Virus record (IMG/VR): IMGVR_UViG_3300047474_000090
Span: 1 to 24,149 of that record
Length of the DNA: 24,149 nt
Origin: a virus
Strand: one strand, 5' to 3'
Positions 7,224 to 20,773 of the stretch are shown piece after piece (position 1 is the first letter of the stretch; the number at the start of each line of letters is the position of its first letter). The translations under genes were made by a program, and so were the position numbers. The notes under the pieces are model-generated. The model was not told where the DNA came from. It was given only the letters and a program-made list of their open reading frames with translations, and searched no databases.

Positions 7224-8822
7224 TTAAGGAAGTTGTCTGCGTTGTCTTAAACGATCAAAACCTTTTATCCTTTGTAGTTCTTTCCGTTGTAGTTGTTCAC
7301 CGTCTTCAAAGTCATATGTATAATCTTCTATAATTTCTAGAGGCTCACCTACACCTTCTATGTAGTAGTCTTGTTCTTCTAATTTGCCTCTTGGTGCATT
7401 ATCACACTTACTATCCTCGCAGTTAATAAGACTTACATCATATCTTACACGGTTAAGATGATAGGCTGCATCAGCATAGTCACGATATCCTGCTGGATCG
7501 TCCCAAGGCGCCCATGATCTAGGATCATTTCCTCGTATAAGATCACCGTACATCTCACCACAAGTAAGTTTAGAATTGTGATGTCCTCTTTCACCTGAAT
7601 CGTATGACATTATATCTGGAAAACTTCTACCACACAGCGATTCCCATCCATGACCAAACTCACTCCAAATGTATCCACTGTTTGCGTAAGCACGATTCTC
7701 AGGACCATGTGCTAATCCTACTGAGTGTCCTATTTCATGTAGGTCAGTGTATGCACCACATCTAGATAAACCCACAGGAGCTACGTTAGAGTTTTCCTGA
7801 AAATATCTGTTCACATATGCACATCCGCACGTATTCGGGCATACAGATCCTACACCTATACCAACGTCTGCATTAGTTTGAGTTCGAACAATAGATTTGA
7901 GACCTCCACTACCATGATAGTGCATACGGCCTACGTTGCCTTCCTTGAGTACATAACGTATGTGTATACCCGATCTTTCATACGCTTCGTTATAGGTGTT
8001 TACAGTTTTTTGAACTTTGTCCCATTCTGCTGATCCTTTTTCAAACAGTTCTGTAATGTGTGATTGATGATAATTCTCATCTGAAGATTCCTCGCTATCG
8101 TAAATAAAGTATGCAAGTTCCCATTCTACAATTTGATCGTCATCTTCGCCATAATAGATATATCCTTGTGTAGGCCCACTGTAGGCATAGCCTTGACAAT
8201 CTGGTGCATAGCCAGTGCTGGCTTTACCACATCTAGGTTCTTCTAAAATAGTAAACTGTATTTCCTCACGTCCAACTGTAACAATACCTTCTCCTGTTTG
8301 TCCAGCACCATAGACTAGTATGTCATTGCCTCTGCGTTCTATGTGTCCTAGTGTTGTTGAAGCATGAACCATACCCCACGGCTCTTCACGTCCTAAAAAG
8401 TCTGTGTAGATTACGTTTATCACAGCAGGTTTAAACCTGTCACCCTCTGCTTTCTCTAACTCTAACACTAGTGTTGGCGGTTCCCATCCACACTCTACAG
8501 ACTGGCTATCCTTTTCAGAATATGTTCCGCCTTCGCCATCAGCATATTGGAACCATTTGACACCAGGATAACTTTTAGAACAACCTTCGCGTAGCAGTGT
8601 GCCTGCTTCTGGAACAGGCGGCATATAACCACATTGTTCTGACTCTAAGTATAACATTGTTGTGCTGCCGCCTACACCGTCGGCAATCTCTTCTACTAAA
8701 GTTGTGCCGTTACAAGATGTGCCAAGGACAGTACCTTGCTCTGGATGTGTTGGAGGTTCAACACTGCACCAAGATGATAAAACTCCGTAGAGGAAAAGGG
8801 CGTTACAGATATCAATAAACAT
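7224..8822 (-). CDS. Secreted-type metzincin metalloprotease with N-terminal tandem modules
   Basis: The 532-residue protein carries HEIGHSVGLAH at residues 362-372, the metzincin zinc signature (H362, E363, H366, H372). A downstream Met-turn candidate DIMSY has M406. The hydrophobic first 20 residues look like a signal or membrane-entry segment, although they lack positive charges. Residues about 24-69 and 69-116 form two tandem modules sharing P-E-x-G-T-x-L, a cysteine, A-D-G-x-G-G, C-G and P-P. Similar modules occur in marine phage virion proteins as I recall them. Many cysteines suggest disulfides outside the cytoplasm. ATG at 8822 has AAGGAG 6 bases upstream, partly caught in a leader hairpin. 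It lies between the tail spike and a nuclease. Possible roles are degrading host surface or envelope proteins at entry or lysis, or acting as a virion-bound protease. Confidence 0.85.
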   Translation of the reverse strand: MFIDICNALFLYGVLSSWCSVEPPTHPEQGTVLGTSCNGTTLVEEIADGVGGSTTMLYLESEQCGYMPPVPEAGTLLREGCSKSYPGVKWFQYADGEGGTYSEKDSQSVECGWEPPTLVLELEKAEGDRFKPAVINVIYTDFLGREEPWGMVHASTTLGHIERRGNDILVYGAGQTGEGIVTVGREEIQFTILEEPRCGKASTGYAPDCQGYAYSGPTQGYIYYGEDDDQIVEWELAYFIYDSEESSDENYHQSHITELFEKGSAEWDKVQKTVNTYNEAYERSGIHIRYVLKEGNVGRMHYHGSGGLKSIVRTQTNADVGIGVGSVCPNTCGCAYVNRYFQENSNVAPVGLSRCGAYTDLHEIGHSVGLAHGPENRAYANSGYIWSEFGHGWESLCGRSFPDIMSYDSGERGHHNSKLTCGEMYGDLIRGNDPRSWAPWDDPAGYRDYADAAYHLNRVRYDVSLINCEDSKCDNAPRGKLEEQDYYIEGVGEPLEIIEDYTYDFEDGEQLQRKELQRIKGFDRLRQRRQLP

Positions 8823-11331: not shown

Positions 11332-11582
11332 AATGTTCGTAACTGTGATTGTAATTGTTTCAACTGTTGTTGTGTTGCTTTAATTTGTGCTTGAATTTGT
11401 TTCTTTTGTTGTTGTGCAGCTTTTCTAGCTTCTGGTGAGTTTGGATCAGGTTGCCCTATAGTATTGTCTACGCCTGCTTGTTGGGCATTCATTTTTGACA
11501 TTTGTTGTTTCATTTGCCCTCCTGATACGCCTGAGGCACCTTGTTGATCTGCTGGAGTTCCTACTAGTTCATCTACTCTCAT
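11328..11582 (-). CDS. Glutamine-rich coiled-coil small protein
   Basis: The 84-residue protein begins MRVDELVGTPADQQG. Residues 21-35 are Met/Gln/Lys-rich, and residues about 48-82 form a low-complexity helix with Gln every few positions (KKQIQAQIKATQQQLKQLQ), a likely coiled coil. ATGA overlaps tie it to both neighbours. There is no catalytic motif. It may be an assembly or packaging accessory protein; this is inferred from context and shape. Confidence 0.78.
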   Translation of the reverse strand: MRVDELVGTPADQQGASGVSGGQMKQQMSKMNAQQAGVDNTIGQPDPNSPEARKAAQQQKKQIQAQIKATQQQLKQLQSQLRTL

Positions 11583-11923
11583 CTTGCACCTCTACGCTTC
11601 CTAGGTTTAATCCTACGTCTACCTGTATTTAATCTTTTCAATTTATTTGTAGTAGGACTTGTTCTAGTTGTTCTACTACGTTTAACATCTATAGTAGATG
11701 CTTTTGATCTACGTGTTTTCTTTAATTGATTGCTCTTCTTAACATTCATTGGAGCATTGCAGGTTGCTGCCTTAGCAACAACCCTACCTTTGCGTGGACC
11801 ACTAGTACAACGGTACTTGCGTGACGTATGACCTGTTCCACTTTTAGGCGTCTTCTTTGACCCGTGGCCAAATACTGTAGCGACACCTTCATCCACTTCA
11901 ATAAAGAGCTCTCGGAGTTGCAT
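11579..11923 (-). CDS. Very basic small protein, paralogue of the upstream gene
   Basis: The 114-residue protein is extremely rich in Arg and Lys, especially the last 60 residues (ending RRRIKPRKRRGAR). It begins MQLRELFIEVDE12-G13, a capsid-targeting-like start with a possible prohead protease site. The central motif RKYRCTSGPRKGRVVAKAATC (two cysteines 16 residues apart) is shared with the protein encoded at 11923-12219, so the two arose by duplication. A nucleic-acid-binding, DNA-condensing internal head protein fits, but no function is proven. Its ATG overlaps the previous TAA as TAATG, with AAGGAG upstream. Confidence 0.8.
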   Translation of the reverse strand: MQLRELFIEVDEGVATVFGHGSKKTPKSGTGHTSRKYRCTSGPRKGRVVAKAATCNAPMNVKKSNQLKKTRRSKASTIDVKRSRTTRTSPTTNKLKRLNTGRRRIKPRKRRGAR

Positions 11924-12219
11924 TAGCGTCTCCTTTTATTTAGAGCTTGTACTCTTTTACTTGCTGGATTAATACGTTTTGTTTTACGTGCTTTACGTGC
12001 CATTCTTCCGCCTAGTCTTGCTTTAGTCTTTTTAAGAGTCATTCTTTTCTTTATGTCAGGAGCAGCAAAACATTGTGCCATTTTTGATACAATTCGATTC
12101 TTGCGTGGGCCGCCAGTACAACGGTACTTGCGAACTACCTTCTTTCCAGAACGTGCCCAAGTTTGACCTTCATCGAGGTCCTGTTCATTTTGATCAATAA
12201 AAAACTCACGTAATAACAT
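11923..12219 (-). CDS. Very basic small protein, first of a tandem pair
   Basis: The 98-residue protein begins MLLREFFIDQNEQDLDE17-G18, where LDE-G resembles a T4 gp21 cleavage site. The core RKYRCTGGPRKNRIVSKMAQC matches its downstream paralogue, and the tail is Lys/Arg-rich (ending ALNKRRR). After cleavage the mature part would have almost no acidic residues. The ATG has no ribosome site and is only 5 bases from a GATAAATAA motif. A CTAAATAA motif (11936-11943) lies in its last codons and may help transcribe the next gene. A DNA-binding head role is inferred. Confidence 0.8.
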   Translation of the reverse strand: MLLREFFIDQNEQDLDEGQTWARSGKKVVRKYRCTGGPRKNRIVSKMAQCFAAPDIKKRMTLKKTKARLGGRMARKARKTKRINPASKRVQALNKRRR

Positions 12220-13473: not shown

Positions 13474-14415
13474 TTAGCGTTTTTTAGCTCGTTGTTGAAG
13501 GGCTCTTAGCTGTTGTACAAACGCAGGGCCGCCTTGTACAATGTCATCTATTGCTTTAATTGCTGGCATGTATGCTTGAATCATGCTTGCAGATGCTGCT
13601 TTATTGTTCTTAGCTTGCTCTAAAAACTTCTTAGTCAATGCTAAATTACCTGTGCCAACTAGATAACGATATAGTGCTAATTCATCACCTGTAGTTGCAA
13701 TATCAGGTGTAGATACAGTTGGTTCTGGATCTATAACACTTGCTTTCTCTAGGTCTTTAACTGCTGCAAACTTTTCAAAGTCTTCAATTATATCTGAGTT
13801 TCTTAGTTTAGCCCTAACAGCAAATATTAAACGTGTTGATACTAGACGCTTTTCTGCTTTAGTTAAACGAGGAAAGTTAGCTATATTCCTACGTATTGCT
13901 TTGTAATCTGTATTAGATATGTTAAGTGCGCCTTCGATTGCCATTAACATCTTTCCAGGAGTTATAGGATTAGCTCCTTGCGCTAATGCCCGAAGGTATC
14001 TATTAATAGCTGCAATTGGTAGCTTAGTATTCTTCTTAAGAAGTTTAGCCTTGTCCGGATCTTTAAGTTTATCTTGAGCACTATCATCCCCTACTAGGAA
14101 ATAGATAAAGTTATATAGGTCAGTGCCCATTATACGATAAAATTTATAAAGATCAAAGCCAATAGTTTTCTTTGCGTATCGTTGTACATATCCTTTAAAG
14201 TCTGGATAGTTGCGCATTGTTTCAAATACTAAAAGCATAAGGTACATACGTTCGCCACAGTCAGTATACGTTAGACGTTGTGAGCTGCCATTGTCTTTGG
14301 TCATGCGTGACTCGTGCAAGTCTTTTAAGAAAGAAAATGCAACTTCAGAGTCGGGAGTCATTTCATGACCACCTTCAATCTCTGCCCACTGTGCTGCTGT
14401 ATACTTTTCAGACAT
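13474..14415 (-). CDS. Unknown helical 313-residue protein
   Basis: I recognise no domain. The sequence is mostly helical, with aromatic clusters (GFDLYKFYRIMGTDLYNFIYF at about residues 86-106) and a basic C-terminus (QLRALQQRAKKR). A disordered Pro/Thr segment lies around residues 232-245. There is no signal peptide; the aromatic stretch is amphipathic rather than a clear membrane helix. It starts 2 bases after the preceding gene and lies downstream of the two nucleotidyltransferase candidates in the same orientation, so it may be part of that module. It could also be an unrelated virion protein. Confidence 0.75.
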   Translation of the reverse strand: MSEKYTAAQWAEIEGGHEMTPDSEVAFSFLKDLHESRMTKDNGSSQRLTYTDCGERMYLMLLVFETMRNYPDFKGYVQRYAKKTIGFDLYKFYRIMGTDLYNFIYFLVGDDSAQDKLKDPDKAKLLKKNTKLPIAAINRYLRALAQGANPITPGKMLMAIEGALNISNTDYKAIRRNIANFPRLTKAEKRLVSTRLIFAVRAKLRNSDIIEDFEKFAAVKDLEKASVIDPEPTVSTPDIATTGDELALYRYLVGTGNLALTKKFLEQAKNNKAASASMIQAYMPAIKAIDDIVQGGPAFVQQLRALQQRAKKR

Positions 14416-14417
14416 TA

Positions 14418-14825
14418 TTAGCCTTTAGCATACATTTTTGCATCGCGATCAATCTCGTCATCGCTTGGACCTTTGTCATCTAACTCGTCATCATCTTCTG
14501 GATCTGCTGACGGTTCAGGGTCGGGCATAGCAACTTTACGGGCTTGTTTAGCTTTAGCCATAATGTCATCTAATTCATCTTTAGATACACCGGCTTTCTT
14601 AAGAGCTTCACCTGGAGTCTTTGCTTGTCCATCTGGTAATTCAGATAGCATAGTTCCTAGCATACTTGCTTTGTTCCATACTTCATCATCTGGCCATTTT
14701 ACACCAGACTTTGGTTCTAGTGCGTTTGTAATCTGTTGTCCAAGTCTACGAACGCCGGCTAACTTTTCTGCATTAGGGTCGTAAATTGAACTTCTTGGAC
14801 CTTCTGTTACTTCATTGATCTTCAT
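14418..14825 (-). CDS. Acidic protein with capsid-targeting-like start
   Basis: The 135-residue protein starts MKINEVTE8-G9, matching the shared N-terminal pattern and offering a V-T-E/G protease-like site. Residues 15-95 form a small helical region; residues 96-125 are Asp/Pro-rich (PDPEPSADPEDDDELDD), then a short charged end. AAGGAAA lies 8 bases before ATG 14825. It sits between the nucleotidyltransferase pair and the unknown 313-residue protein. The acidic tail could mimic DNA or shield a basic partner, but that is speculative. Confidence 0.75.
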   Translation of the reverse strand: MKINEVTEGPRSSIYDPNAEKLAGVRRLGQQITNALEPKSGVKWPDDEVWNKASMLGTMLSELPDGQAKTPGEALKKAGVSKDELDDIMAKAKQARKVAMPDPEPSADPEDDDELDDKGPSDDEIDRDAKMYAKG

Positions 14826-14846: not shown

Positions 14847-16022
14847 TTAATTTGGTTGCCATCTAGTACGTGGTACTAGTTTAGTTTTACTTCCAAGAGC
14901 CACGTAACCTTCGCCACCCTTCTCGCCTTTTGTTGTTGCCTTAACGTCTGCATCAGCATCGTCTAATTGATCTATGATATGATCTTTAGCAGACATAATT
15001 TGTTTTACAAGATTAAAAATAGCAGGTAGTGCTTTAGGATTACTTTGACTCATTGCTGCTAATCTTTGCTGCTGTCCTTGACTTACTTTTGATGTTTTGA
15101 GCCAATCAAAAAAGCCTGACTCTATATTTTTTATTTGTTGTGTTCGAGTCATGTGATTCATATATGTATATATAATTCCTGCAGGATTACTTAAACCTTT
15201 TTCACCTGCTAAGAATTGATCAATTGCTTGTGCATTTTTTTCTGCGTAGGCTCTAATACTTTTTACTTCTTTTGTATCTACTTTTGGTTGGTGTGTAACA
15301 TAAGTTTGTCCTAACACCACTGCATCTTGCGAGTTAAGTTCTTTTACATCCTTAATAGGAGTGCCTTGTTTGCTCCCCCAACTGTCAAATTTTGTGTGAA
15401 CTACTACACCAACTTTTGAATTCGCTATGCGTCCACCGAGTTGGCCCTTTGTATCTACTGTGTATTTGACATTGTTGGGTTCAAACTCTACTGCACCTTT
15501 AGTTACAGTAAAGGGTTTACGTGGACTGTATAACAAATCACCGTATACATATCCTCTAAAGTTTGGAGGTGTAGCTGCTTTCATTATGTTAAAAACTTCT
15601 GCCATCTCTTCACTAAAGTCTTCGCGCCAAGGCTCTTCTTCTACACCTTTGCCTGAGCTTCTAATAAAATTCATAAGATTCTCTGCGCTTGTTGATTTAT
15701 TACGGCCCCAGCCGTTCTTGCCAACAAGTACAAACTCTCCATCTGGCTCGCGCCCCCAATAGATAGTAGGGTTGCCGTCCCATTTGATTGCGATATCGCC
15801 TGAGTCACTGCCCATCTTTTCTAAGATGTCAGCAGCTTCTAATGCTCCAGCTGAACCTTTAACAAATACAAGATCCTCTAGGTGTTGATATTCTCTACCT
15901 ACCTTAGCTTCTGTGAGTTGATTACCTGTGTCTCTGTCTTTGTCCTTGCAGATGCAAGGCTCGGTGTAACACTTTTGACAGAACCAGGTTTCTTTTAATA
16001 CTTTAAACTCTGACCATCTCAT
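14847..16022 (-). CDS. Putative ligase-type nucleotidyltransferase (KxDG) with zinc-knuckle leader
   Basis: The protein is 391 residues. Residues 1-26 contain C15-x2-C18-x4-C23-x-C25, a possible zinc knuckle, behind the start MRWSEFKVL. LTE38-A39 resembles a T4 prohead protease site, so the knuckle part could be removed. The core shows IAIK80-W-D82-G83, the motif I lysine pattern of DNA/RNA ligases and capping enzymes, then FVLVGKNGWG, and GYVYG161-D162-LLY, like motif III. Motifs IV and V are less clear (a KVGVVVHTKF segment at 203-212 is the candidate). Family knowledge: K80 would be adenylated or guanylylated. The gene overlaps the next one by ATGA, so both products probably act together. 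It could be an inactive relative with a structural role. Confidence 0.65.
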   Translation of the reverse strand: MRWSEFKVLKETWFCQKCYTEPCICKDKDRDTGNQLTEAKVGREYQHLEDLVFVKGSAGALEAADILEKMGSDSGDIAIKWDGNPTIYWGREPDGEFVLVGKNGWGRNKSTSAENLMNFIRSSGKGVEEEPWREDFSEEMAEVFNIMKAATPPNFRGYVYGDLLYSPRKPFTVTKGAVEFEPNNVKYTVDTKGQLGGRIANSKVGVVVHTKFDSWGSKQGTPIKDVKELNSQDAVVLGQTYVTHQPKVDTKEVKSIRAYAEKNAQAIDQFLAGEKGLSNPAGIIYTYMNHMTRTQQIKNIESGFFDWLKTSKVSQGQQQRLAAMSQSNPKALPAIFNLVKQIMSAKDHIIDQLDDADADVKATTKGEKGGEGYVALGSKTKLVPRTRWQPN

Positions 16023-16879
16023 TTTACAAAACTTCCTGATACCATTACAGTACTGTTTAACAATACTCCGCTTAGTTCTTTAATACGATCAAGTTGTTTA
16101 TCTTCTAGTGTTTTAGATTGTGACTCAGGAACTTCTTTACCTGCTTTCTCCATCGCTTCTTTCCACGGAGCAATCAGTTCTTCGTAGTTTGGATCTTTCT
16201 TTAAATATTTAAGCATACTTTCAACAGTATGTGTATCAGTTTCTTTTGCACCTTTACCTAACAACGCTGGTGCAATTGTTTTCCATGTATCAGCAATAAC
16301 TTTGTCGCCTTGCTCTGGGTCAACTAATCCAAACTTAGGACTAAATTTTAAGCCTCTGCCTCTAGCAATTGCTGATAACAAGATAGCTCTGTCCTTGCCT
16401 GAATATTGTTGTGTTCCACCACGCTTGGCTCCACGCTGAAAGTCAGGATTAGATGTAAACATAAAGTCAGTCTGCACAAAGCCATTCTTAGAATTGCCGT
16501 CAATAGGTGTACGGAAGTGAATTTGGTCTCCTGCGTTATGTATCCAGCCGTCTGTCTTCCCTCTGCCTTGATTCATAATATCTGCTTTGTCAACACCTTG
16601 TGTTGCAAGCCATGCACTTAGTTTAGCAATCAATTGTTCTTTGCTTACTTTGTTTGCATCTGTGTTTAGATCTAAGTCGCCTGAACTATTCTTTTCAAAC
16701 GCTCCGTCTGGATCATTCTTTTTACCTGTTGTACCTAACCAATCTTCTTCGTCAAAGGTCAAGCCTGTAATCTTTTCAATAAACTGAATAGTAGGATGTA
16801 CATCCTTTGTAGCAATACGTTGAGTCAAAGGACCTTGTGGTGTTTTAAATACGTTTCCGCCTTCGTTAAGTATTGTCAT
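16019..16879 (-). CDS. Putative Pol-beta-type nucleotidyltransferase
   Basis: The 286-residue protein contains LGTTG (48-52) and then SSG67-D68-L-D70-L-N-T-D, resembling the metal-binding DxD of the Pol-beta nucleotidyltransferase superfamily. A third acid candidate is D138 in VQTDFMF after a strand (QIHFRTPI). Residues 150-200 are basic (RGAKRGGTQQ, ARGRGLKF). It begins MTILNE6-G7, with LNE-G resembling a prohead protease site. Members of this superfamily transfer nucleotides to RNA, proteins or small molecules; the substrate cannot be told. The downstream gene overlaps it by ATGA and encodes a ligase-like candidate, suggesting a two-enzyme system. Confidence 0.62.
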   Translation of the reverse strand: MTILNEGGNVFKTPQGPLTQRIATKDVHPTIQFIEKITGLTFDEEDWLGTTGKKNDPDGAFEKNSSGDLDLNTDANKVSKEQLIAKLSAWLATQGVDKADIMNQGRGKTDGWIHNAGDQIHFRTPIDGNSKNGFVQTDFMFTSNPDFQRGAKRGGTQQYSGKDRAILLSAIARGRGLKFSPKFGLVDPEQGDKVIADTWKTIAPALLGKGAKETDTHTVESMLKYLKKDPNYEELIAPWKEAMEKAGKEVPESQSKTLEDKQLDRIKELSGVLLNSTVMVSGSFVK

Positions 16880-17129
16880 TGTTTTTGTTCTCTATAATTT
16901 TGTTTATGCTGCGACGGAACTTACGGGGATCTCCCGATCTAATACTATTAATAAAACGTCTTTCAAGTTCAGAAGCAGTTTCCATATCAAATTGTTCGTG
17001 AATTCTGCTTAAAAGATTAATAGAACTTTCTATAATATTATTAGCAGTAGACTCAATCAAACGCTCGTTGTCGCGAGTCCCGTGGACACTGTTAAGTTCT
17101 TCTAAAATTGATCTAGTACGTTTTTTCAT
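16866..17129 (-). CDS. Small helical protein, unknown function
   Basis: The 87-residue protein begins MKKRTRSILEELN. ATG 17129 is preferred over ATG 17138 because the AGGA site touches the latter directly but sits 9 bases from the former. The sequence is a helical bundle type: ESTANNIIESSINLLSRI, then ELERRFINSIRSGDPRKF, with many charged residues. It looks conserved among T4-like marine phages as I recall the pattern, without known function. It overlaps the nucleotidyltransferase gene by 14 bases and is first in this minus-strand run, facing the lipase gene. Confidence 0.8.
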   Translation of the reverse strand: MKKRTRSILEELNSVHGTRDNERLIESTANNIIESSINLLSRIHEQFDMETASELERRFINSIRSGDPRKFRRSINKIIENKNNDNT

Positions 17130-17147
17130 GTTTTCCATTCCTATGCA

Positions 17148-17199: not shown

Positions 17200-17985
17200 A
17201 TGACAAGCGGTATTAAGGACATTGACTTCAAAAAACGTTCTCTTTTATTTGCTAGACTATCCAAGATATCTTATAATAACATCAAAGTAGCTAAAAAGCA
17301 AGCGGAAAGATTAGGTTTCACTGAAGTAGAATTTTATAACAAAGACGGTGCGCAAGCATATCGTTTTATGAATGACACAGATATAGTAATTGCGTGTCGC
17401 GGAACACAACCTACACAATTTAACGATATTGCAGCAGATTTAAAAGCAATGCCTGTCGTTGCTGAAACTGTTAGTAGAGTTCATAGAGGATTTAAAGCAG
17501 AAGTAGATGAACTGTGGCCAAGAATAATGGCAGACCTAATGTCAAAGCAACCTAAGCAAAAACTTTGGTTCTGCGGTCATAGTTTAGGAGCTGCAATGGC
17601 AACTATAATGGCAAGTCGCTGTCACTTTAACACACGTTTGCCAAATCCAGAGGAATTATACACTTATGGTTCACCAAGAGTAGGTTGGAAAGGTTATGTT
17701 GTCCATTTAGGTGTCGTACACCATCGTTGGAAGAACAATAATGACATTGTCACTACTGTTCCTTATAAATGGATGGGTTATACACATCATGGCGAAGAAC
17801 ACTATATGAATGCATATGGCAATGTTCGCAATTTGACTAGGTGGCAGCGTGTTAAGGATCGCTGGCGTGGTATGTGGATGGGAATAAAGAGAGGAAAAAT
17901 TGATAACTTTTCTGATCATTCTATAGATAATTATATTCTTTATCTTTCATTATTTGCAAAGGGTAAAGAAAATACACAACACTAG
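17200..17985 (+). CDS. Class 3 lipase, alpha/beta hydrolase
   Basis: The 261-residue protein matches the Lipase_3 layout: VHRGF (94-98) before the helix, the nucleophile elbow G126-H-S128-L-G130, then YGSPRVG (156-162), the catalytic acid candidate D182 in NNNDIVTTVP, and H240 in FSDHSIDNY. Such enzymes hydrolyse acyl esters of lipids. No signal peptide is visible, so it would act in the cytoplasm or need holin access to membranes. A Trp/Arg-rich segment (WQRVKDRWRGMWMG, about 215-228) could bind membrane. It is a single plus-strand gene with a perfect late promoter and a terminator. Late timing suggests membrane damage or lipid remodelling at the end of infection. Confidence 0.88.
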   Translation: MTSGIKDIDFKKRSLLFARLSKISYNNIKVAKKQAERLGFTEVEFYNKDGAQAYRFMNDTDIVIACRGTQPTQFNDIAADLKAMPVVAETVSRVHRGFKAEVDELWPRIMADLMSKQPKQKLWFCGHSLGAAMATIMASRCHFNTRLPNPEELYTYGSPRVGWKGYVVHLGVVHHRWKNNNDIVTTVPYKWMGYTHHGEEHYMNAYGNVRNLTRWQRVKDRWRGMWMGIKRGKIDNFSDHSIDNYILYLSLFAKGKENTQH

Positions 17986-19436: not shown

Positions 19437-19694
19437 ATGACTACGTTGACAATGGCGGCTGGTTACAGCCTTTCAGGAGTAGCGAACTGGATCAAAAAAA
19501 TAAACGCTAAAATGGCACACAGAAGATCTGTGCGTCAAGCAGTAAAAGACCTTTCATCACTATCAGACTATGAACTAAATGACATTGGTATTTCCCGTGG
19601 AGATATCCGTGCTGTTGCTAATGGTGATATCACTATGAAAAGAGGTATCCAAGTCCACACAGATGCTAACACAAACCTCAAGGGGTGGGTGTAA
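19437..19694 (+). CDS. DUF1127 (YjiS-like) small protein
   Basis: The 85-residue protein has the DUF1127 core at residues about 27-62: RRSVRQAVKDL, then LSDYELNDIGISRGDIRAV, where the L-S-D-x-E-L-x-D-I-G-I-S-R-x-D-I pattern is diagnostic. The family is common in alphaproteobacteria; one member (CcaF1 of Rhodobacter) binds RNA and affects small-RNA maturation. The N-terminus (TMAAGYSLSGVANWIKK) is amphipathic. It is first in a plus-strand operon behind a sigma70-type promoter and structured leader. A host-mimicking RNA regulator is a reasonable inference, and the gene was probably acquired from a host. Confidence 0.88.
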   Translation: MTTLTMAAGYSLSGVANWIKKINAKMAHRRSVRQAVKDLSSLSDYELNDIGISRGDIRAVANGDITMKRGIQVHTDANTNLKGWV

Positions 19695-20152: not shown

Positions 20153-20773
20153 ATGACGCTGGTCCACTACAAGCCAACCTCTACGTCTGACTATTTTGCA
20201 TACGGCTTTACTAAAAGTATGCGATGGTTTGCGGATACGTTCTTCCGCAAGCGTTATGGACATAGAGCAGTTGTATTAGAAACAGTAGCCGCAGTGCCAG
20301 GAATGGTAGGCGGCATGTGGACGCATCTTAGAAGTTTGCGTAAACTACGCCCTGGATATGGGCCACTAATCCGTACCCTACTAGCAGAAGCAGAAAATGA
20401 ACGTATGCATTTAATGACGTTCATTGAAATTGCAAAGCCTAATTGGTTTGAAAGACTGCTCATACTGGTTGCACAAGTTATATTCTGGCATGTATACTTT
20501 ATAGTATTTCTTATATCGCCATCTACTGCACACAGAATAGTAGGTTACTTTGAAGAAGAAGCTGTGTATTCGTACACAGAATATCTTAATGAGCTTGACG
20601 AAGGGCGCATTGAGAATGTTCCTGCACCTAGAATTGCAATTACGTATTGGAACTTAGCGGATGATGCTAGGTTGCGTGATGTAATTCTAGCTGTTAGAGA
20701 TGACGAAGCAGGACATAGAGATGTTAATCATTATATTGCTACATACGGCAATGTAAAGGTTGACAAGTACTAA
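20153..20773 (+). CDS. aox: Alternative oxidase (quinol oxidase, diiron)
   Basis: The 206-residue protein has all expected diiron ligands: E43 in [11 protein letters not shown]83 and H86 in ENERMHL, E135 within [12 protein letters not shown], and E185 and H188 in [11 protein letters not shown]. The hydrophobic segment 101-122 fits the membrane-attached face. The enzyme oxidises quinol and reduces oxygen to water without pumping protons. The usual EAHH is EAGH here, but the liganding histidine is kept. It closely follows the mini-protein genes and lacks its own ribosome site, so it is probably coupled. Cyanophages carry the related plastoquinol oxidase; HRDVNH and the DUF1127 neighbour suggest a ubiquinol-type enzyme from a proteobacterium. 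It could keep respiration flowing or lower oxidative stress during infection. Confidence 0.92.

What the first reader, a model, noticed from the sequence alone, without database searches (positions are those of the whole stretch)
14847..16879. Coupled pair of unlike nucleotidyltransferase candidates
Two overlapping genes (ATGA) encode a KxDG ligase/capping-type candidate (K80, D82, G83; motif III-like GDLLY) and a Pol-beta-type candidate (D68, D70, D138). Both carry N-termini with LxE-A/G sites like those cut by the T4 prohead protease. Seen: the motifs and overlap. Known: T4 Alt and internal proteins are packaged this way and act early in the host. Inferred: this may be an injected two-enzyme system that modifies or seals host or phage RNA, DNA or protein, possibly against host defences such as tRNA cleavage.
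Basis: partly seen in the sequence, partly recalled or inferred. Interest (0 to 1): 0.78.

Follow-up and report, generated by a model that had tools for sequence, protein, structure and literature searches.

The report
Virus-carried polymerase and ligase pair
A marine virus of bacteria carries two tightly linked genes that look like a small gap-filling DNA polymerase and a strand-joining enzyme, both apparently tagged to be packed inside the virus particle, so the virus may bring its own repair kit into the cell it infects.

Summary
P2 (16879-16019) and P1 (16022-14847) overlap by ATGA and all cited residues are in place. P1 is a DUF6267 protein with a ligase-type motif set (K80-x-D-G, G-D162, E371-G-x-V, K381); its AlphaFold2 model aligns to polynucleotide ligases in all 50 listed VIA rows (Z 7.5-5.3). 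P2 has a family-X polymerase palm and thumb (Z 10.3); its profile scores 33.8 against bacterial PolX (best of 200 decoys 24.0) and no better than decoys against CCA-adding or MNT-type enzymes. Catalytic residues are conserved in the homologues. Distant P2 relatives occur in jumbo phages of Agrobacterium, Sinorhizobium, Pseudomonas and Prevotella; in the first three a ligase-like gene overlaps P2 or lies two genes away. The PA5oct copy is annotated as a virion protein by ESI-MS/MS. Best reading: a virion-delivered PolX-like/ligase-like module that fills gaps and seals incoming DNA. Not shown: packaging of P1, substrate, activity. Against: P1 has no convincing profile link to known ligases; PA5oct's ligase-like protein carries no MS note; the LxE site alone is no more frequent in this window than chance. 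Nothing found supports tRNA repair.

The parts
16019..16879 (-). P2, 286 aa, PolX-like nucleotidyltransferase (palm + thumb)
   Evidence: AF2 pLDDT 89.8, pTM 0.79; Foldseek Pol mu/beta/lambda in the 50 rows shown, best E 1.0e-3, prob 1.00; VIA Z 10.3, 164 aligned, rmsd 3.5; hhalign to PolX
16862..16879 (-). P2 predicted leader, residues 1-6 (MTILNE), cut before G7
   Evidence: [LIV]xE|GGN in 210 of 234 P2 homologues; the 4 jumbo-phage homologues aligned start at M-[GS]-G
16670..16684 (-). P2 SGDLD, metal-binding Asp68 and Asp70
   Evidence: sequence; 230 of 230 rows
16466..16468 (-). P2 third catalytic Asp138
   Evidence: 230 of 230 rows; in register with the third Asp of PolX
16202..16408 (-). 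P2 thumb-like region, about residues 158-226
   Evidence: VIA model range to 220 against Pol beta to 335; hhalign columns 135-186 or 135-205 to the PolX palm/thumb
16019..16022 (-). ATGA overlap, P2 stop with P1 start
   Evidence: kept in 105 of 110 loci
14847..16022 (-). P1, 391 aa, DUF6267, ligase-like covalent nucleotidyltransferase
   Evidence: Pfam PF19782 E 3.6e-28; AF2 pLDDT 89.2, pTM 0.82; all 50 listed VIA rows are polynucleotide ligases, Z 7.5-5.3
15909..16022 (-). P1 predicted leader, residues 1-38: capsid-targeting-like MRWSEF start, Cys-rich stretch, then LTE|A39
   Evidence: [LIV]xE followed by A, G, F or E before the HxED box in 219 of 232 P1 homologues; R[FYWIL]x[EDQ][FIL] start in 195 of 232; low pLDDT
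15774..15785 (-). P1 motif I, K80-W-D-G
   Evidence: 234 of 234 rows
15528..15542 (-). P1 motif III-like GDLLY, D162
   Evidence: D162 in 234 of 234 rows; kept in all 11 cultured-phage homologues aligned
14952..15287 (-). P1 mostly helical stretch between motifs III and IV, about residues 246-357
   Evidence: DSSP of the model; homologues of syn9, P-SSM5, ACG-2014f and ACG-2014d are shorter overall, 296-335 aa
14901..14912 (-). P1 motif IV, E371-G-Y-V
   Evidence: E371 in 230 of 234 rows, gap in 4
14868..14882 (-). P1 motif V, K381-L-V-P-R385
   Evidence: K381 in 230 of 234 rows, gap in 4; K[LFI]VxR in all 11 cultured-phage homologues aligned
13474..14415 (-). P3, 313 aa, unknown protein, likely part of the module
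   Evidence: homologue directly downstream of the P2 homologue in Atu_ph07 (tblastn E 2e-17) and Phosso; downstream of P1 in 179 of the 188 loci that hold a P3 homologue
16866..17138 (-). 90-aa gene upstream of P2, phrog_11854 'virion structural protein'
   Evidence: PHROG E 2.6e-16; homologues near the module in Phosso and Atu_ph07 and PA5oct (7.8e-26)
14418..14825 (-). 135-aa gene between P1 and P3 with a capsid-targeting-like start (MKINEV); membership tentative
   Evidence: homologue in 143 loci, none in the two jumbo loci searched

Best explanation
P2 is a minimal family-X-type DNA polymerase core (palm and thumb, no 8-kDa lyase domain) and P1 a ligase-type enzyme that carries AMP or GMP on Lys80. 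They are translated together, placed in the prohead by short leaders, trimmed by the prohead protease after LNE6 and LTE38, packaged, and delivered with the genome. In the cell P2 would add nucleotides at gaps or ends of the incoming DNA and P1 would seal the nick. Shown here: conservation, predicted fold, gene coupling, leader sites. Reported by others in a record note: a P2 homologue found in PA5oct virions by MS. Inferred: cleavage, delivery, activity, DNA rather than RNA, cooperation of the two.
For: P2: the 50 Foldseek rows shown are all Pol mu, lambda or beta; VIA Z 10.3 over 164 residues from palm to the end of the thumb; hhalign to 15 bacterial PolX 33.8 (probability 45%, E 2.2e-4 for one comparison) against at most 24.0 in 200 shuffled decoys, and 32.9 against at most 24.7 of 60 with a wider profile; CCA-type 13.9 and MNT-type 13.7, below their best decoys. 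P1: motif set in uncultured and 11 cultured-phage homologues; 50 of 50 listed VIA rows are RNA or DNA ligases; BFVD match to 'RNA ligase [Agrobacterium phage Atu_ph07]', 324 aa, E 8e-3, the length of gp066, which overlaps that phage's P2 homologue. Pairing: P2 directly upstream in 84 of 105 P1-fetched loci, P1 directly downstream in 108 of 115 P2-fetched loci. Recurrence with a different ligase-like family in reversed order in Atu_ph07 and Phosso, and separated by two genes in PA5oct. Packaging; capsid-targeting-like starts in 7 of 32 window genes, at most 2 in 2000 shuffles, though I wrote the pattern after seeing the sequences. Replication genes (helicase, primase) nearby in the jumbo phages and cyanophages.
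Against: P1 has no profile match to bacterial RNA ligases (15.1/15.5; best decoys 26.5/26.8) or LigD (18.0/18.3; 21.8/21.7); a wider profile gives 24.2 for RNA ligase against a best decoy of 20.6, over 30 columns only, and 19.2 for LigD against 22.3. Its VIA Z stays under 8, which the tool warns can be a common arrangement. No ligase model is among the 25 of 28 Pfam families shown for the P1 members. For P2 one of 50 members touches the Pol beta palm model (E 0.14) and one touches AbiEii nucleotidyl transferase more strongly (E 0.012), 25 of 27 families shown. P1 ends 10 residues after motif V, so it lacks a C-terminal OB domain. Of 105 P1-fetched loci 17 show no P2 and 4 have it elsewhere. 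No P2 was found in the 4 Kyanoviridae loci searched with the profile, nor in any cyanophage record by tblastn; several of those P1 relatives have a cytidylyltransferase-like gene nearby instead. EST35_0228, the ligase-like gene of PA5oct, carries no MS note. The main text of PMC3037559 does not name T4-GC 71, so it gives no virion evidence for DUF6267 itself. The LxE[AG] site alone is not above chance in this window.
Confidence: 0.5

Rival explanations
1. RNA repair: P1 is an RNA ligase and P2 adds nucleotides to broken RNA 3' ends, restoring host or phage RNA cut by defence nucleases.
For: The best VIA rows for P1 are RNA ligases (Naegleria Rnl, Trl1, TbREL1, with T4 Rnl1 close below); the ligase-like partner in Atu_ph07 touches Pfam RNA_ligase at E 0.002, below the curated cut-off; P1 lacks an OB domain after motif V.
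Against: P2's profile matches PolX, not CCA-adding or MNT-type enzymes, and its listed fold matches are DNA polymerases. Rows whose Z differs by under 1 are tied, so the RNA versus DNA order within one search is weak. No tRNA gene in the window.
Confidence: 0.22
2. The pair are ordinary intracellular replication or repair enzymes that are not packaged; the LxE sites are incidental or serve another role.
For: Cyanophage DUF6267 sits between gp41 helicase and gp61 primase, and 7 of 11 cultured-phage homologues start within 8 residues of the HxEH box, so have no leader; PA5oct's ligase-like gene carries no MS note; the site alone is not above chance in the window.
Against: The site is kept while the residues before it vary; jumbo-phage P2 homologues start at the predicted mature end; the P2 homologue in PA5oct is annotated as an ESI-MS/MS structural protein; the DLP_6 homologue of P1 has its own T4-like start, MMKFTQFLAES.
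Confidence: 0.25
3. P1 and P2 transfer nucleotides to proteins or small molecules of the host rather than joining nucleic acid, a counterpart of T4 Alt in role.
For: In cyanophages the P1 relative neighbours a cytidylyltransferase-like gene, and in the S-PM2 record one gene product holds the C-terminal half of DUF6267 plus that domain. One of 50 P2 members touches the AbiEii nucleotidyl transferase model at E 0.012.
Against: The PolX thumb and the ligase-like partner in jumbo phages fit nucleic-acid ends better.
Confidence: 0.12

Closest known systems
Phaeocystis globosa virus PolX-ligase fusion (PgVPolX)
   Same: A virus joins a Pol beta-like core with a ligase; reported to fill gaps and seal nicks (PMC5537341, abstract and passages seen)
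   Different: Fused, NAD+-dependent ligase, with 5'-dRP lyase activity; a virus of eukaryotes; the word virion does not occur in its main text
African swine fever virus PolX plus DNA ligase
   Same: Small PolX without the 8-kDa domain (PMC5537341 passage) and a separate ligase (start of the abstracts of PMC5330486 and PMC6344480 in listings)
   Different: Unrelated virus; the PMC5330486 abstract says its PolX lacks the thumb, which P2 appears to keep
DUF6267 / T4-GC 71 of cyanophages
   Same: P1 is a member: Pfam E 3.6e-28, same motifs
   Different: 7 of 11 cultured-phage homologues have no leader; no P2 found; a cytidylyltransferase-like neighbour (T4-GC 190) in several instead
T4 internal proteins and Alt with capsid targeting sequence
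   Same: Short N-terminal leader removed by the prohead protease gp21 (PMC9026906 and PMC9958956, passages seen)
   Different: Alt is an ADP-ribosyltransferase; the leader letters differ
Trypanosome RNA editing, TUTase plus RNA ligase (recalled)
   Same: A Pol beta-superfamily enzyme working with a covalent ligase
   Different: P2's listed matches are PolX; TUTases were not compared directly

Membership tests
Family X DNA polymerase | DxD plus third Asp in a Pol beta-type palm | tested here: met
   D68, D70, D138 in 230 of 230 rows; palm fold
Family X DNA polymerase | Thumb following the palm | tested here: met
   Alignment reaches Pol beta residue 335; hhalign palm/thumb columns
Family X DNA polymerase | 8-kDa lyase domain (usual; absent in ASFV PolX, passage) | tested here: not met
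   Pol beta alignments mostly start at residue 102 or 139; only about 65 residues precede the DxD in P2
Family X DNA polymerase | Passes the curated Pfam PolX models | tested here: not met
   PF14792 touched by 1 of 50 members at E 0.14; so called PolX-like, not filed as a member
Family X DNA polymerase | Gap-filling activity | not testable with these tools
   Needs an assay
Polynucleotide ligase / capping covalent nucleotidyltransferases | Motif I KxDG, motif IV EGxV, motif V Lys | tested here: met
Polynucleotide ligase / capping covalent nucleotidyltransferases | Motif III acidic residue (usually Glu, recalled) | tested here: inconclusive
   Invariant Asp162 in place of Glu
Polynucleotide ligase / capping covalent nucleotidyltransferases | Nucleotidyltransferase fold | tested here: inconclusive
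   50 of 50 listed rows are ligases but Z 7.5-5.3; Foldseek best E 0.14
Canonical ATP-dependent DNA ligase | OB domain after motif V | tested here: not met
   P1 ends 10 residues after K381
DUF6267 (PF19782) | Passes the Pfam cut-off | tested here: met
   99.4 bits, cut-off 27; 44 of 44 members of A5 match
CCA-adding or MNT-type nucleotidyltransferase | Profile similarity to these families | tested here: not met
   hhalign 13.9 and 13.7, below the best decoys 20.7 and 18.9
T4-type packaged internal protein | Leader ending in LxE before A or G, kept in homologues | tested here: met
   but the site alone is not above chance in this window
T4-type packaged internal protein | Found in the virion | tested here: inconclusive
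   Record note ESI-MS/MS for the PA5oct P2 homologue; no data for this phage or for P1

The most novel reading that the evidence does not exclude
Tailed phages of several unrelated groups carry, inside the particle, a PolX-like polymerase together with a ligase-like enzyme from one of two distant families, with a third protein of unknown function (P3) in the window's clade, Atu_ph07 and Phosso, as a delivered end-repair kit that acts on the incoming genome before any phage gene is expressed.
Probability: 0.4. Interest if true: 0.78.

Novelty: new variant of a known kind. Interest (0 to 1): 0.62.

Why it matters
It proposes a testable function for DUF6267/T4-GC 71, a family with matches in 467 phage records, mostly cyanophages, and labelled of unknown function in Pfam and PHROGs. 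It would also be a phage counterpart of the PolX-plus-ligase repair known from giant viruses, delivered with the genome rather than made after infection. One search of the paper library for the term DUF6267 found nothing; I did not search it for other names of the family or for P2.

Tried and rejected
P1 versus bacterial RNA ligase and LigD profiles: no match; with a wider profile weak for RNA ligase, none for LigD. P1 and P2 profiles against single proteins from loci holding bacterial PolX and ligases: none of those detected; P2 needed PolX profiles. Profile searches of PDB sequences gave only chance-level hits. tRNA-repair reading: P2 does not match CCA-adding or MNT-type profiles, no tRNA in the window. 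T4 Alt-like ADP-ribosyltransferase: no such family for P1 or P2; the Certhrax rows (E 0.039, 0.15) and the AbiEii touch of one P2 member (E 0.012) were taken as weak or chance. TUTases and other RNA nucleotidyltransferases do not appear among the 50 listed rows, which are all Pol beta, lambda or mu; that list is crowded by Pol beta entries, so this is inconclusive. Bacterial genomes: 3 loci in 2 MAGs encode P1 relatives (one search places two of them in one genome); not followed. P1 loci without P2 mostly have instead a short gene with an MRIDEF-, MVKITEF- or MINEI-type start; not followed. Ligase near the Lak copy of P2: a KxDG scan of the fetched 12.7 kb found no candidate with EGxV. Packaging of the Atu_ph07 genes: the main text does not name gp064-066; its supplementary table was not read.

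Dropped rows: one search excludes homologues shorter than 85% of the query; one search counts P1 rows of 330 aa or more; one search excludes loci with under 1 kb upstream (P1) or under 1.2 kb downstream (P2). The same contig was often fetched more than once, so locus counts are not independent. The alignments sent for structure prediction (A5, 44 rows; A6, 50 rows) are thinned sets.
Full report
Observation. On the minus strand, P2 (16879-16019, 286 aa) runs into P1 (16022-14847, 391 aa) through an ATGA overlap. The window is a virus record of 24,149 bases as IMG/VR holds it. Its NrdA gives best listed matches to T4-like Synechococcus phages at 71-72% identity (8 rows seen), so the virus is of the T4-like marine kind.

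Homologues. Pairing: among P1-fetched loci with at least 1 kb upstream, 84 of 105 have P2 immediately upstream, 4 elsewhere and 17 none; among P2-fetched loci with at least 1.2 kb downstream, 108 of 115 have P1 immediately downstream, 2 elsewhere and 5 none. Contigs recur in these sets, so the counts are not independent.

P1. It is a member of Pfam DUF6267. Eleven homologues from cultured phages, 296 to 418 aa, keep KxDG, [GA]D, PNxxxY, EGxV and K[LFI]VxR (S-PM2, split over two annotated genes, was left out). The AlphaFold2 model (pLDDT 89.2) gives weak Foldseek hits to fungal tRNA ligase (E 0.14). In the VIA second look all 50 listed rows are RNA or DNA ligases, best Naegleria RNA ligase with Z 7.5, rmsd 4.5, 179 aligned; for chains from NHEJ complexes I took ligase IV from the residue ranges. 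In BFVD it matches DUF6267-like phage proteins, proteins named cytidyltransferase-like (S-PM2, E 4.5e-17), and 'RNA ligase [Agrobacterium phage Atu_ph07]', 324 aa, E 8e-3, prob 0.66. Against this, profile comparison with bacterial Rnl and LigD fails or is weak. I therefore hold P1 to be ligase-like on motifs plus fold, not on sequence homology.

P2. No Pfam family is found for it and the one PHROG touch is weak (E 0.074); of 50 members one touches AbiEii at E 0.012 and one the Pol beta palm at E 0.14. The model (pLDDT 89.8) matches Pol mu, lambda and beta (Foldseek best E 1.0e-3, prob 1.00; VIA Z 10.3 over 164 residues, rmsd 3.5), from palm through thumb. Profile against 15 bacterial PolX palm/thumb sequences: 33.8, hhalign probability 45%, best of 200 decoys 24.0, reversed 14.9. 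The same test with 17 CCA-type and 18 MNT-type rows gives 13.9 and 13.7, below the best of 60 decoys (20.7, 18.9). The aligned columns hold the third catalytic Asp and the start of the thumb; a two-sequence PolX template also aligns the DxD.

Distant relatives. tblastn and profile searches find P2 in jumbo phages Atu_ph07 and Phosso, in PA5oct and in all 11 near-identical Pseudomonas phage records matched (two of them PA5oct itself), and in 15 Lak records. In Atu_ph07 and Phosso the gene overlapping it upstream touches Pfam RNA_ligase at E 0.002 and 0.085, below the curated cut-off, and the gene downstream is a homologue of window P3. In PA5oct a gene related to Phosso's ligase-like gene (tblastn E 1e-5 over 26% of the query; KxDG and EGxV visible) is separated from the P2 homologue by two genes. 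All three have a homologue of the phrog_11854 gene nearby. The E-values come from a search of a few dozen ORFs, with a profile that already held the Atu_ph07 and Phosso members; a profile of those two alone gives 7.8e-14 for PA5oct.

Packaging. I did not see the original proteomics. P2 homologues keep [LIV]xE|GGN in 210 of 234; P1 homologues keep [LIV]xE before A, G, F or E, ahead of the HxED box, in 219 of 232, a looser rule than T4's. The four jumbo-phage P2 homologues begin M-[GS]-G, at the residue that follows the predicted cut. Of the 11 cultured P1 homologues 7 start within 8 residues of the HxEH box, syn9 and ACG-2014d have an internal Met shortly before it, and Melnitz and DLP_6 have extensions, that of DLP_6 (MMKFTQFLAES) resembling a T4-type leader. 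In the window 7 of 32 gene calls have a capsid-targeting-like start by my pattern (P1, 11116, 11328, 11579, 11923, 14418, 22976); 2000 shuffles give a mean of 0.12 and at most 2, but the pattern was written after seeing the sequences; the [LI]xE[AG] site by itself, 4 of 32, is not above chance (302 of 2000 shuffles). Two of these genes, 11579 and 11923, encode very basic proteins (+29, +24). PMC3037559 (passages seen) reports T4-GC190, the cytidylyltransferase cluster beside DUF6267 in several cyanophages, in S-SM1 virions; T4-GC 71 is not named in its main text and its Table S8 was not seen. In S-PM2 the T4-GC190 product also contains the C-terminal half of DUF6267.

Mechanism. The best reading is a virion-delivered gap-filling and sealing pair. 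Conservation and predicted fold are shown; cleavage, delivery, activity and substrate are inferred. The nearest precedent for the logic is the PolX-ligase fusion of Phaeocystis globosa virus (PMC5537341, abstract and passages). An RNA target remains possible, because P1's best rows are RNA ligases.

They pull in both directions and I left the odds as they were.

Noticed in passing
window 11579-11923 and 11923-12219: Two adjacent very basic small proteins (+29, +24) with capsid-targeting-like starts, likely packaged DNA-binding internal proteins.
   Followed up: partly
window 20153-20773: Alternative oxidase (Pfam AOX, E 1.1e-80) in a T4-like phage record, near a DUF1127 gene (19437-19694, E 3e-10).
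   Followed up: no
window 7224-8822: Large protein with a reprolysin-like metallopeptidase match (E 8.6e-7).
   Followed up: no
window 17200-17985: Class 3 lipase-like gene (E 2.6e-19) on the strand opposite to the module.
   Followed up: no
L008, L032-L034, L140-L142, L152-L155, L157, L158, L165, L166 upstream of P1: Loci without a detected P2 have instead a short ORF (111-154 aa) with an MRIDEF-, MVKITEF- or MINEI-type start directly before P1.
   Followed up: no
L301:3992-5771 (S-PM2): DUF6267 is split over two annotated genes, the second joined to a cytidylyltransferase-like domain; an S-PM2 protein in BFVD is one 591-aa product.
   Followed up: partly
L302:3959-5194 (Stenotrophomonas phage DLP_6): Its DUF6267 protein starts MMKFTQFLAES, much like the T4 capsid targeting sequence as recalled, unlike most cultured relatives.
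   Followed up: no
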